A stretch of 64,000 nucleotides of DNA. It comes from Oscillospiraceae bacterium (GTDB taxonomy: Bacteria; Bacillota_A; Clostridia; Oscillospirales; Oscillospiraceae). The position numbers and the translations under genes were made by a program. A model generated the notes under the pieces. The model had not been told where the DNA came from. It saw nothing but the letters and a program-made list of their open reading frames with translations, and did no database searches. This document shows positions 51,719 to 59,307 of the stretch, piece by piece. The first letter of the stretch is position 1, and every line of letters starts with the position of its first letter. The stretch spans positions 1-64,000 of the forward strand of contig SVLP01000008.1 in the NCBI GenBank assembly GCA_015067895.1, in the 5' to 3' direction.

Positions 51719-52243
51719 ATGCATATGGCATGGCTGGCACTGGGCGGGATGCTCTGCTCGCTGCAATTGTCCACGGGCAGCTTCCCCCGGCCCCTGAGCC
51801 CGAAGGAGGAACGACACTACCTGGAGCGCGCCGCCCAGGGAGACACCGAAGCAAGAAACATCCTCATCGAACGCAACCTGCGCCTGGTGGCCCACATCAT
51901 GAAAAAATACTACGCCGCCGAATCCGATCAGGAGGATCTGATCTCCATCGGCACCATCGGCCTTATTAAGGCAGTCAGCTCCTACCGGCTGGACAAAAAC
52001 ATCCGCCTGGCGACCTATGCGTCCCGGTGTATAGAAAATGCGATCCTATCACAAAGGACAAATCGGCCAGCTCCTTTCGGGGCTGGCCGACTGTTTAGGG
52101 ATGGTTATGCAGCTGGTGCTGGCTTGTCAGTCACTTCTCGGTCTCCAGGAACAGATATGCGGTGGTGGCGCTGCTGCTCAGGGAGATGCTGCTGCCGGAG
52201 AAGCGCAGATAGTAAGAGCCGACCTTCACGCGGCTGCTGCTGA
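51719..52243 (+). CDS. sigK: Sporulation sigma factor sigma-K, N-terminal half (interrupted gene)
   Basis: Codons 51719-52039 encode 107 residues that match the N-terminal half of sigma-K, the late mother-cell sporulation sigma factor: a hydrophobic start, FPRPLSPKEERHYLE, DTEARNILIERNLRLVAHI, DLISIGTIGLIKAV and RLATYASRCIEN. This covers region 2. After the junction at 52036-52040 the frame reads about 68 unrelated codons of inserted DNA to a stop at 52243. The rest of sigma-K is at 58948-59307. The ATG at 51719 has GGAGGT eight bases upstream. The gene is non-functional unless the 6.9-kb insert is excised. Confidence 0.93.
   Translation: MHMAWLALGGMLCSLQLSTGSFPRPLSPKEERHYLERAAQGDTEARNILIERNLRLVAHIMKKYYAAESDQEDLISIGTIGLIKAVSSYRLDKNIRLATYASRCIENAILSQRTNRPAPFGAGRLFRDGYAAGAGLSVTSRSPGTDMRWWRCCSGRCCCRRSADSKSRPSRGCC
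52036..52047 (+). other. Left attachment site of the sigK element (attL)
   Basis: AAATGCGATCCT here matches AAATGAGATCCT at 58944-58955. Crossing over in the shared AAATG joins GAA-AAT to GAG-ATC and restores IENEILM. Confidence 0.85.
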
Positions 52244-55200
52244 AGGAGACACTGCTGGAGCTGGAGGTGCTGATGCCCAGGGTCGGGCTGCTGCCCCACA
52301 GGGAGCCCCACCAGCTGGGACTGGAGGCATACAGGTAGCGGGTGGTGCTGCCGCTCTTGTAGGAGAGCTTGCTGCCGGAGTAAGTCCAGAGCAGATCCTC
52401 GGTGATCTCAGAGGTGATCTTGCCGTTGGAAACGGTGACCTGGACGGCGGAGAGCTGATTGTTTGCGTGGGACAGGGCATAGTACTTGCTGCCGGAGTAG
52501 AGGGTGACCACATGCTGGCCGCCGGTGGTGAAGGCAGTGACCTGGACGTAATCGGGGGCGAGGGACTCGGAATAGCTGTCGCCGCAGCGGGTGCAGGTGT
52601 AGACGATGGCGTCCTCGGTCTCCCGGGAGGTGTAGCTGTGGCCCAGCGCGTCGGTGCGGCTGTCGGTATGGCTGAGGCCGCAGATGGTGCAGGTGTGGGT
52701 GGAATAGCCCTGGGCGGTGCAGGTGGGCTCCACGCAGACGGTCTCATAGTCATGCTCGCCGGTGACGGTCACGGTCACGGTGCCGATCTGCTGACCGCTG
52801 TGGGAAACGGTGGCGGTATAGGTGCCTGCGGTGTAGCCGTCAAAGGCCTTGTCCCAGGTGACCATGGCAGCGGTGAGGGGTGCGGAGGTGCTGACGGAAG
52901 CGCCGTCGGTGCTGGTCTGGAGCATCACCTGCTCCAGAACGGCAGCCTCGGTGACCTGAGCGCCGTGGGCCCAGGTCTGGTTCAGGGCGCCGGTCAGACG
53001 GACGTAGCTGTCCACAGCCTGGAACAGACGGAGGGAGCGGGCATTGCTGGAGACGGCGAACCGGCTGGCGGCCTCGTTTGCCCAGACATAGCCGTAGTTC
53101 AGGTACCACTTCTGGTTGTCGGTGTCATAGAGCTGGTAGGAGCCATTGGAGGAAGAGCCGAAGTGCCAGTAGCCCTTGTTGTCGGTGCCGTAGTACAGGT
53201 TGCCGCCCATGTGGTAGACGCCGCTGCGGCCATCCTGGGTCAGCAGATAGCTGCCGCTTTCGGCGTTGTTCTTCATGAAGTAGAACTCATAGGCGGAGGC
53301 ATCTGCAAGACGGATGGCATTGCCGTCCACGGTGACCTTGGCGGCGCCGATGGAGTTGCCGGAGCGGGTCAGGGCGTAATTCTGGGAATCGCCGACCACC
53401 AGATACTTGTGCTCGGCACCCACGTCGATGCCGTCGGTATCCAGAACATAAGTTCCGGACAGGGCGATCCAGCCGATGGACTCGCTGTAGCTGTCGCCGC
53501 AGTGGTCACAGGTGTGGATCAGGGCGTCGGGAGTCTCCACGGTGGAGTAGCTGTGGCCCAGGGCGTCGGTCTCGTCGGAAACGTAGCTGTCGCCGCAGGC
53601 AGCGCAGGTGTTGGTGGTGAAGCCGCCCTCGGTGCAGGTGGGAGCGGTGACCAGGCTCTCATAGGCGTGGCCCAGAGCAGCGGTCTCGTCGGAAATGTAG
53701 CTGTCGCCGCAGGCAGCACAGGTGTTGGTGGTGAAGCCGCCCTCGGTGCAGGTGGGGACGGTGACCACGGACTCCCAGGCATGGCCCAGAGTAGCGGTCT
53801 CGTCGGAAATGTAGGTGTCGCCGCAGTTGGCGCAGGTGTTGGCGGTGAAGCCGCCCTCGGTGCAGGTGGGAGCGGTGACCAGGGTCTCATAGGCGTGGCC
53901 CTGAGCGGCGGTCTCGTCGGAGACATAGCTGTCGCCGCAGTTGCCGCAGGTGTGGGTGGTAAAGCCGCCCTCGGTGCAGGTGGGAGCCGTCACGACGGAA
54001 GCATAGGCGTGACCCAGAGCGGGAAGGGCCTCCTCCACGTGGTGACCGCAGACAGCACAGGTGGAGCTGACGGAACCGGCCGTCTCACAGGTGGCCGCGA
54101 TGGTGACGGTCTCATAGGCGTGACCGGGAGCGGGGAGAAGCTCGGTGCTGCTGTCGCCGCAGACGGTGCAGCTGCGGGAAACGAAGCCGTCCTCGGTGCA
54201 GGTGGGCTCCACGGTGACGGTCTCACAGCTATGGCCCAGAGCCTCCACCCGGGAATCCACGGCGATGCTGCCGCAGAGGGTGCAGGTGTGGGTGGTGAAG
54301 CCGTCCTCGGTGCAGGTGGGAGCGGTGACCACGGACTTCCAGGCATGGCCCAGGGCAGCGGTCTCGTTGGAAATGTAGCTGTCGCCGCAGTTGGTGCAGG
54401 TATGGGTGGTGAAACCGTCCTCGGTGCAGGTGGGAGCGGTGACCAGTGCCTCATAGGCATGGCCCAGGGCGGCAGTCTCATCGGAGACATAGCTGTCGCC
54501 GCAGTTGGCGCAGGTATGGGTGGTGAAACCGTCCTCGGTGCAGGTGGGAGCGGTGACCAGGGTCTCGTAGGCGTGGCCCGGGGCGGTGACCACATCGGTC
54601 ACATAGCAGTCGCCGCAGGTGCGGCAGGTATGGGTGGTGCAGCCGTCTTCGGTGCAGGTGGGGGCGGTCACGACAGAGTCATAGGCGTGGCCCAGGGCGG
54701 GGAGCACCTCCACGGTGGACTCGCCGCAGAGGGTGCAGAAGGTGGTGACGGAACCATCCTCGGTGCAGGTGGGCTCCACGGTCACGGTCTCATAGACATG
54801 CTCGGGGCCGGTGTAGACCACGAAATAGTCGGGATTGCTGGCGGCCAGGGTCTCGATGAGGTACATGACCTTGGTCTTGTTGCTGTTGTAATCGGCGCTG
54901 GGATCGTCACACCAGAGGCAGCTCATGGAACCTGCCAGACTGTCGGTGCTCATGGTACCTGTACCCGGCACGCTGGTGACAGCGGTGCCGCTGACGCCCT
55001 TGGATGCGCTGGTGTAGCCGTAGCCGTCATTCTGGCCATTCCGGCCCAGGACATAGTACCAGGCGTCGTTGGTATTGAGGATCTTGTGGCCCTTGTTCAC
55101 CAGATAGGAAGCGGGGGCGACGGCATAGGTGCCCCAGCCGGAAGTCCAGTAGGCGATGATGATGTCCGGGTCGAAGGTGCCGGTGGTCTTCTGATTGAAA

Positions 55201-58943: not shown

Positions 58944-58955
58944 AAATGAGATCCT
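58944..58955 (+). other. Right attachment site of the sigK element (attR)
   Basis: AAATGAGATCCT, one mismatch from 52036-52047; the reading frame of sigma-K resumes at GAG-ATC-CTC-ATG (EILM). Confidence 0.85.
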
Positions 58956-59307
58956 CATGTACTTCCGCAGCCGCCGCAAGAGCAGCCAGGATGTGTCCCT
59001 CTCGGAGCTGATCGAGACTGGTACCGATGGAGCGGCCCTGTCGCTGCAGGATGTGGTGGCGGGGGAGGAGGATCTGCTGGAGGAGCTGTGCGACCGGGAA
59101 AATGCCCGGAAGCTCCGGGCGGCGGTGGATGCGTGCCTGACGGAGCAGGAGCGGCAGGTGGTCTGCCTGCGCTACGGCCTCTTCGGCTGTACCCCGGGGC
59201 GCCAGCGGGAGGTGGCAGAAAAACTGGGGATCAGCCGCAGCTATGTATCGCGCATCGAGAAGCGGGCGCTGGAGCGGCTCCGGGCGGAGCTGGAAGGGGA
59301 ACGGTGA
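58948..59307 (+). CDS. sigK: Sporulation sigma factor sigma-K, C-terminal half (interrupted gene)
   Basis: These 119 codons continue sigma-K from the junction: EILMYFRSRRKSSQDVSLSE, then region 3/4 with LTEQERQVVCLRYGLFG and the -35-recognition helix-turn-helix EVAEKLGISRSYVSRIEKRA, a sigma-K hallmark. Joined in frame to 51719-52039 it gives 226 residues, the normal sigma-K length. It has no ribosome site of its own, so it is silent until the element is removed. In B. subtilis the equivalent piece is called spoIIIC. The RiPP-like cassette B promoter starts 95 bases after the stop. Confidence 0.93.
   Translation, partial: EILMYFRSRRKSSQDVSLSELIETGTDGAALSLQDVVAGEEDLLEELCDRENARKLRAAVDACLTEQERQVVCLRYGLFGCTPGRQREVAEKLGISRSYVSRIEKRALERLRAELEGER

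What the first reader, a model, noticed from the sequence alone, without database searches (positions are those of the whole stretch)
51719..59307. A compact 6.9-kb 'skin' element splits sigma-K
Seen: the N-terminal 107 codons of sigma-K stop at ...RCIEN and the C-terminal 119 codons resume at EILMYFR 6.9 kb later. The junctions share AAATG (AAATGCGATCCT and AAATGAGATCCT). Joining them restores the canonical CIENEILM and a 226-residue protein. A large serine recombinase ends eight bases from the right junction. Known: B. subtilis and C. difficile sigK are interrupted by recombinase-bearing elements that are excised in the mother cell. Inference: this organism controls late sporulation by DNA excision with a very small element.
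Basis: partly seen in the sequence, partly recalled or inferred. Interest (0 to 1): 0.93.

Follow-up and report, generated by a model that had tools for sequence, protein, structure and literature searches.

The report
Mobile cargo element splitting sporulation sigma-K
A 6.9-kb piece of DNA sits inside a gene for spore formation (sigK) and is likely cut out by its own recombinase when the cell sporulates; of the 80 closest recombinase relatives fetched, 74 lie upstream of a piece of the same gene, and the elements, which carry different passenger genes, have likely moved between species.

Summary
sigK is split at codon 107 by a 6,908-bp insert; joining the flanks gives one 226-codon frame that aligns without gaps to intact sigK of a relative. 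The element's joined ends form 9-bp perfect inverted arms round an AA dinucleotide, the probable crossover.

New here: (1) Of the best 80 of 419 recombinase relatives in GTDB genomes, 74 lie upstream of a sigK C half that starts at the same codon. (2) Recombinases at least 95% identical occur beside sigK halves at most 50% identical, so the elements have likely moved between hosts. (3) All 14 elements read in full carry the small gene found here (63 aa), predicted to be the directionality factor; its profile hits 16 of 24 split-sigK genomes and 0 of 26 intact ones. (4) Split sigK shows low dN/dS in relatives, arguing against a relic, with caveats. (5) Cargo differs; here it is a GH20 glycosidase and a TetR regulator.

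Excision is untested, the window's own genome is not held, so a second sigK cannot be excluded, and the window's own mother-cell promoter evidence is weak. Verdict: a new variant of the known skin/gin kind; 'very small' is not exceptional.

The parts
51668..51698 (+). Candidate mother-cell-type promoter upstream of sigK (matches the motif found upstream of the small gene in relatives)
   Evidence: Motif scan: 9.4 bits, sixth best of about 128,000 positions in the window. Prediction only; the training sites score 23.7-42.8 bits.
51719..52039 (+). sigK N-terminal half, 107 codons, with a hydrophobic pro-sequence-like N terminus
   Evidence: Sigma70_r2 2.1e-13; GRAVY +0.985 for residues 1-20 versus -0.5 for the rest
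52037..52062 (+). attL: AA core 52037-52038 and the element's left arm (TGCGATCCT...)
52131..56042 (-). Cargo: GH20 glycoside hydrolase, 1303 aa, signal-peptide-like N terminus (by eye), Cys-rich repeats
   Evidence: PF00728 2e-26; nearest relatives by identity 66-70% in the 120 listed
56111..56161 (.). Two copies of GTTAGCNNNGCTAAC (56111 and 56147) between GH20 and TetR: candidate TetR operators, just downstream of a sigma-70-like promoter for GH20 (56197-56170, minus)
   Evidence: inverted repeat I21; positions; promoter scan 11 of 12
56359..56931 (+). Cargo: TetR-family regulator, 190 aa
   Evidence: PF00440 3.6e-9
56983..57174 (-). Small gene, 63 aa: predicted recombination directionality factor
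   Evidence: relatives in 30 of 80 loci, in 14 of 14 complete elements, in 16 of 24 split and 0 of 26 intact genomes; no Pfam, NCBIfam or PHROG match; two-helix model, pLDDT 92.6
57236..57259 (.). Perfect 24-bp palindrome GCGCCATAGGATATCCTATGGCGC upstream of the recombinase start; role unknown
   Evidence: this sequence was not listed upstream of the recombinase in the other loci, some of which have other palindromes
57275..58936 (+). Large serine recombinase, 553 aa
   Evidence: PF00239 3.1e-34, PF07508 5.9e-17, PF13408 1.8e-9; phrog_95 integrase 6.8e-107
58921..58946 (+). attR: the element's right arm (...AGGATCGCA) and AA core 58945-58946
58945..59307 (+). sigK C-terminal half (120 codons counting the shared Asn, plus stop)
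   Evidence: PF04545 8.6e-16

Best explanation
A 6,908-bp element that encodes a large serine recombinase, a 63-residue protein predicted to be its directionality factor, a TetR regulator and a GH20 glycosidase interrupts sigK at codon 107, and it is likely excised in the sporulating mother cell by recombination at an AA dinucleotide, which would restore a 226-codon sigK. Predicted steps: in growth the element stays put, because the recombinase alone favours attP x attB integration; in the mother cell the directionality factor is made and turns the enzyme to attL x attR; the circle leaves and sigma-K is translated, perhaps as a pro-protein. The forespore would keep the element, so the cargo is inherited. 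The element belongs to a family found at the same sigK codon in many genomes, with related recombinases and att arms, a related small gene in every element read in full, and different cargo; comparison indicates that members have likely moved between hosts.
For: Sequence: in-frame join, 6,908-bp circle, gap-free match to an intact relative; empty sites at the same codon in 26 of 30 loci; AA core in all 19 own-genome att pairs shown, arms largely symmetric; own-genome arms match better than swapped ones (352 versus a mean of 337 of 480, reached by 119 of 20000 permutations; the window has a paired change, GATCGCA/TGCGATC, against the common GATAGCA/TGCTATC). Family: recombinase upstream of a sigK C half in 74 of 80 relatives, 71 within 400 nt, all 74 C-half matches starting at the same residue. 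Low dN/dS, 0.037-0.106, in the 10 of 11 chosen split-split sigK C-half pairs that gave a value (caveats below). Small gene in 14 of 14 complete elements and tied to split sigK: 16 of 24 split versus 0 of 26 intact genomes (Fisher 1.5e-7, or 3.2e-6 for 12 of 20 without the four genomes that supplied rows to the profile). Upstream of it, a motif of mother-cell type with a SpoIIID-like box in 18 of 31 relatives (shuffle mean 0.025). Precedent: C. difficile CD1231 plus CD1234 (PMC5025042).
Against: No excised junction or circle was seen. 8 of 24 split genomes gave no hit to the small gene (G108; G005, G010, G033, G044, G100, G231, G431); incomplete assemblies or divergence may explain this, but so may its absence. 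G108 has a split N half and no recombinase hit at E 1e-60. The window's own small-gene promoter fails the strict motif and scores 4.9 bits, against 23.7-42.8 for training sites; the motif was defined after looking at the same sequences, several of them close kin. In 8 of the 9 pairs with usable values for both genes the recombinase dS is below the sigK dS, so part of the sigK divergence, and of the selection on it, may predate insertion. Homology of the small protein to CD1234, SprB or GirX was not tested; no solved structure matches it. An intact second sigK in the own genome cannot be excluded.
Confidence: 0.83

Rival explanations
1. Relic: sporulation has been lost or another sigK is used, and the split copy is no longer reassembled.
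For: The own genome cannot be searched. Related elements occur in Faecalibacterium and Gemmiger, genera recalled as non-sporing. G108 has a split N half without a detectable recombinase. Part of the selection seen on split sigK may predate insertion.
Against: Both halves and the recombinase are open and full length; the joined protein aligns gap-free to an intact one; dN/dS 0.037-0.106 in 10 of 11 chosen split-split pairs, and in one of them, L060/L074, the recombinase dS (0.72) exceeds the sigK dS (0.52), so the element was probably resident while sigK was held at 0.037; the two ends of the window's element carry a paired base change.
Confidence: 0.1
2. Ordinary genomic island that uses sigK only as an integration site; excision is rare and not developmental, and the element simply blocks sporulation in carriers until lost.
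For: Evidence of movement between hosts; intact and split sigK within one family; the window's own promoter evidence is weak.
Against: Low dN/dS of split sigK, with the caveat above; mother-cell-type motif upstream of the small gene in 18 of 31 relatives.
Confidence: 0.12
3. Decayed prophage or phage satellite that happens to be short.
For: Among 41 related UViG loci, 4 have a sigK half beside the recombinase (C half in L105, L106, L107; N half in L108) and 2 (L108, L109) have a relative of the small gene.
Against: PHROGs gives no structural, replication or packaging match of weight for the four main proteins; a terminase-like hit of TetR has E 0.075. None of the 25 listed Pfam families, of 62, from 50 cargo proteins of 14 elements is a phage structural family (37 families not shown).
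Confidence: 0.1

Closest known systems
skin element of Clostridioides difficile (CD1231 recombinase, CD1234 directionality factor)
   Same: Splits sigK; large serine recombinase; small directionality factor; inverted-repeat att sites; directionality factor under sigma-E and SpoIIID (PMC5025042, passages and Discussion part 1).
   Different: The window element has GH20/TetR cargo and no phage gene found beyond the integrase. Orientation and insertion codon of skin-Cd were not compared by sequence. CD1234 homology untested. The paper says C. difficile sigma-K lacks a pro-sequence; here the N terminus looks like one.
skin element of Bacillus subtilis (SpoIVCA)
   Same: Splits sigK, recombinase inside, excision restores the frame.
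   Different: Prophage-like and far larger (48 kb, recalled); [quoted passage not shown]
Other sigK insertions in print
   Same: PMC5025042 names a prophage in sigK in C. tetani, some C. botulinum strains and one C. perfringens strain (passage); listings name a 22-kb insertion in B. cereus biovar anthracis (PMC10745906) and a sigK prophage in Alicyclobacillus (PMC13141910) (listings only).
   Different: Not compared by sequence here.
gin element of Bacillus cereus ATCC10987 (GirC, GirX)
   Same: Non-phage element in a sporulation gene, serine recombinase plus small directionality factor, horizontal spread suggested by its authors (PMC5595907, passages).
   Different: Inserted in gerE, not sigK; 31 genes and three recombinases.
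Cassette chromosome recombinases CcrA/B/C
   Same: CcrB is the best NCBIfam match of the recombinase (1.3e-34).
   Different: Far below the curated cut-off (119.8 versus 900 bits); not a member.

Membership tests
sigK-intervening (skin-type) elements, as a functional class | Interrupts the sigK coding frame; removal restores it in frame | tested here: met
   226-codon frame, 71.5% to an intact relative without gaps
sigK-intervening (skin-type) elements, as a functional class | Encodes its own large serine recombinase | tested here: met
   PF00239, PF07508, PF13408
sigK-intervening (skin-type) elements, as a functional class | att sites with inverted repeats round a shared core at both ends | tested here: met
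   9-bp perfect arms, AA core, AAATG shared
sigK-intervening (skin-type) elements, as a functional class | Directionality factor made in the mother cell | tested here: inconclusive
   Candidate gene associated with split sigK, 16 of 24 versus 0 of 26; motif in 18 of 31 relatives but not strictly in the window
sigK-intervening (skin-type) elements, as a functional class | Excised from the chromosome during sporulation | not testable with these tools
   No reads or cultures
B. subtilis skin prophage lineage | Phage-derived gene content beyond the integrase | tested here: not met
   PHROGs: of four proteins only the recombinase has a phage functional match of weight
Large serine integrases | Resolvase, recombinase and zinc-ribbon domains in one chain | tested here: met
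   phrog_95 over residues 7-539
gin-type non-phage intervening elements | Serine recombinase plus small directionality factor, no phage genes, inside a sporulation gene | tested here: inconclusive
   Architecture alike; the factor's function and any homology to GirC/GirX were not tested
CD1234-type directionality factors | Sequence homology to CD1234 | not tested
   No C. difficile record was reached; C. difficile is not among the three control genomes named

The most novel reading that the evidence does not exclude
sigK codon 107 is a shared dock for a transferable family of mostly non-phage cargo islands in Clostridia and at least one Erysipelotrichia genus (Holdemania). A conserved recombinase, an undescribed directionality-factor family and a palindromic att site travel as a plug-in developmental switch between hosts, while the passengers (glycosidases, transporters, even a shikimate gene set) are exchanged freely and stay safe in the forespore, because only the dying mother cell deletes them.
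Probability: 0.58. Interest if true: 0.75.

Novelty: new variant of a known kind. Interest (0 to 1): 0.62.

Why it matters
[quoted passage not shown] Here 74 loci in GTDB genomes show a related recombinase upstream of a sigK C half that starts at the same codon, though still in a minority of genomes. If the module works as predicted, a core sporulation switch is carried by transferable elements, their small directionality factors form a nameable family that can be tested in E. coli, and pipelines that call such sigK genes broken could misjudge sporulation in gut bacteria.

Tried and rejected
Own-genome search for a second sigK: not possible. Fold search of the small protein: no match with E at or below 0.001; solved-structure profile search: best E 0.1, to Mediator subunit 8, taken as chance. 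Phage records: no relative of the small gene at E 0.01 (queried with the L006 protein only); recombinase relatives in 996 phage records, all under 60% identical. Strict attR-sigK patterns: 12 of 150 genomes of one family, all 12 with a sigK C half at the match, and 5 of 391 of the class, of which G003 and three others have a C half and recombinase while G255 has neither, so the split form is widespread but a minority; the patterns undercount (11 of the 74 loci depart from GATAGCRAA, and the first pattern did not admit the window's own variant). A pattern for the left junction hit 3 of 5 genomes and was not pursued. A search for a C. difficile comparator through the control genomes failed. GH20 and TetR as family-wide genes: rejected, no GH20 relative and only weak TetR hits in 2 of the 80 recombinase loci. 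An idea that the 41-kb Faecalibacterium element is two elements in tandem: not supported, one recombinase and no internal att core by exact match, though two copies of the small gene. My early notes say the small gene is always opposite to the recombinase; in the loci it is so in 28 of 30 (L010 and L077 are not) and in 14 of 14 complete elements.
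Full report
OBSERVATION. The window holds a sigK gene in two pieces. The N half (51719-52039) ends at RCIEN and carries Sigma70 region 2; the C half (58945-59307) carries region 4. The pieces share AAATG. The joined protein matches the unbroken sigK of a related genome (L154, G059) at 71.5% over 221 residues with no gap. In 120 genomes of one related family, 86 had a match to the N half at E 1e-28 or better; of the 30 best loci, 26 continue straight through this codon and 4 are split. 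Those 26 are natural empty sites.

ATTACHMENT SITE. Putting the element's two ends together gives AGGATCGCA-AA-TGCGATCCT, 9-bp perfect arms round AA. Over 24 positions, 15 match; 2 of 20000 base shuffles do as well. In 19 own-genome pairs of ends (window and 18 relatives) the core is AA on both sides every time. Adding a twentieth pair, own-genome arms match at 352 of 480 positions against a permutation mean of 337, reached by 119 of 20000 permutations. Shared ancestry may inflate this. In the window, the common GATAGCA/TGCTATC is changed on both ends to GATCGCA/TGCGATC, 6.9 kb apart, which is what selection on a symmetric recombinase site would leave (inference from one case). In genome G007 the element lies inverted: the recombinase end faces the N half, and the AA lies on the sigK strand. 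This fits an otherwise near-palindromic site whose polarity is set by the AA alone (inference).

THE FAMILY. The best 80 of 419 recombinase relatives in the GTDB collection were fetched. Of these, 74 have a sigK C half downstream on the same strand, 71 of them within 400 nt; the other three have it 1.5-4.6 kb away. All 74 C-half matches start at the same residue, and 63 have GATAGCRAA directly there. The six without a C half are L010, L031, L046, L061, L073 and L080. The contigs of L010 and L046 end within about 275 nt of the recombinase match; L031 is the inverted case; L031 and L073 have an N half; L061 and L080 are unexplained. Split sigK is nonetheless a minority: a strict junction pattern hit 12 of 150 genomes of one family and 5 of 391 of the class, one of the five being false, and these patterns undercount.

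MOVEMENT BETWEEN HOSTS. Compared over the first 400 residues, 72 of 2,775 pairs of loci have recombinases at least 95% identical, and 30 of those (12 loci) have sigK C halves at most 50% identical. An example from two records not labelled MAG: Holdemania (L004, class Erysipelotrichia) and Tyzzerella sp. An114 (L009) have recombinases 96.8% identical and sigK C halves 42.7% identical. Their DNA is 88% identical over 2.3 kb that ends 15 nt inside the sigK C half. In the other printed pairs the block over the recombinase ends between some 35 nt before and 90 nt past the junction, except with L022, whose C half lies further off (pairs of L004, L007 and L008 only). Horizontal transfer with precise insertion is the plain reading, though no transfer was observed; many of the other loci are MAGs, where misbinning is possible.

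THE SMALL GENE. 56983-57174 (minus) encodes 63 residues. It matches no Pfam, NCBIfam or PHROG family, yet has relatives in 30 of the 80 loci (many loci are cut by contig ends), in all 13 complete elements plus the window, and in 495 database proteins, those with a legible source name among the 120 listed being 'hypothetical'. Its profile was run on the 26 genomes whose sigK was seen intact and on 24 genomes with split sigK: 0 of 26 against 16 of 24 (9 of 10, 7 of 14; a fifteenth genome, G255, is not split and had no hit). Fisher 1.5e-7; without the four genomes that supplied rows to the profile (G002, G003, G006, G009), 12 of 20, 3.2e-6. The eight misses are G005, G010, G033, G044, G100, G108, G231 and G431; completeness of these genomes is not told. 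Two of the hits (G081, G088) contain a stop. The predicted fold is a two-helix hairpin (pLDDT 92.6) without a solved match. Upstream of it, 18 of 31 relatives have a three-part motif (ATA, then RGACR, then CATA or AATA...T) against a shuffle mean of 0.025 over the 32 sequences scanned, the window being the thirty-second and negative. The motif was drawn up after seeing these sequences and several are close kin, so the figure is descriptive. I read it as a mother-cell sigma-factor promoter with a SpoIIID-like box; the consensus names are recalled, apart from the C. difficile facts in PMC5025042. The window's best site there is the 16th best of about 128,000 positions at 4.9 bits, and a site upstream of sigK is sixth at 9.4 bits. 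In C. difficile the excision factor CD1234 is under sigma-E and SpoIIID. Together these make directionality factor the best prediction; it remains untested.

SELECTION. In 11 pairs of split sigK C halves, which I chose among the closest pairs, dN/dS was 0.037-0.106 for the 10 that gave a value; several dS values exceed 1 and are saturated, and the pairs share members. In 8 of the 9 pairs with usable values for both genes the recombinase dS is lower than the sigK dS, so some of the sigK divergence may predate insertion (one further pair, L017/L059, was dropped because only 18 recombinase codons aligned). In L060/L074 it is higher (0.72 against 0.52) while sigK dN is 0.019. The result argues against decay in those lineages but does not prove that excision occurs.

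CARGO. In the window the cargo is a 1303-residue GH20 enzyme and a divergent TetR regulator, with two palindromes GTTAGCNNNGCTAAC between them and a sigma-70-like promoter beside them; I infer TetR control of GH20. A second GH20 gene, 55.7% identical over 424 residues, starts outside the element at 62121, about 2.8 kb past sigK, and runs off the window. Other elements carry an AAA_14/DUF4143 ATPase (5 of 50 proteins scanned), a set of shikimate-pathway enzymes, sugar PTS genes, a chloramphenicol-acetyltransferase-like protein and others. The 25 Pfam families listed, of 62, include no conjugation or phage-structural family; one is a transposon protein (TnpV). How such elements move is unknown. 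Gene calls are a greedy ORF list with false small ORFs; the 50 proteins scanned are the window's two plus 48 of 53 picked from it by size, without recombinases.

LOCKS ON SIGMA-K. The first 20 residues are hydrophobic (GRAVY 0.985 against -0.5), and the 14 relatives printed read similarly by eye. C. difficile sigma-K lacks a pro-sequence (PMC5025042). Excision and proteolysis may both be needed here, as recalled for B. subtilis.

LITERATURE. Nine searches listed no paper that, by title or abstract start, describes this element family; only open-licence PMC papers are searched. I read passages and part 1 of the Discussion of PMC5025042, and passages of PMC5595907, PMC11959909 and PMC11913394; the rest were seen as listings with abstract starts.

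VERDICT. A real, probably active sigK-intervening element: a new variant of a known kind. Its interest lies less in this one copy than in the family it exposes: probably transferable, cargo-swapping, with a testable directionality factor.

Noticed in passing
window 62121-64000 (+): A second GH20 gene, 55.7% identical to the cargo enzyme over 424 residues, lies about 2.8 kb past sigK and runs off the window; the cargo may stem from an old local copy.
   Followed up: partly
window 59498-62047 (+): Downstream of sigK: an 89-aa PqqD-like ORF, an 81-aa Cys-containing small peptide, a 285-aa protein and a 391-aa protein with a radical-SAM-like CxxxCxxC motif; looks by eye like a modified-peptide cluster.
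   Followed up: no
G008 contig C11 125921-167727 (L198-L200): Faecalibacterium longum, of a genus recalled as non-sporing, has sigK halves about 41 kb apart with one recombinase and two copies of the small gene between them.
   Followed up: partly
L031 and L099 (G007): The element is inverted relative to sigK, with the AA core on the sigK strand; natural evidence that the core dinucleotide sets polarity.
   Followed up: partly
L108, L109 (UViG contigs of 38.8 and 75 kb): Larger virus-like contigs carry a related recombinase and a relative of the small gene; in L108 the recombinase faces a sigK N half that ends at the same codon.
   Followed up: partly
L021 841-11798: A sigK element whose cargo includes a set of shikimate-pathway enzymes, so the mother cell would delete an amino-acid pathway (assigned to L021 by eye).
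   Followed up: partly
window 57236-57259: Perfect 24-bp palindrome upstream of the recombinase ribosome-binding region; it contains AGGATATCCT, resembling abutting att half-sites, so autoregulation is conceivable.
   Followed up: no
G081 and G088 (small-gene hits): The small gene has an internal stop in two split-sigK genomes; the element may be decaying there or use another start.
   Followed up: no
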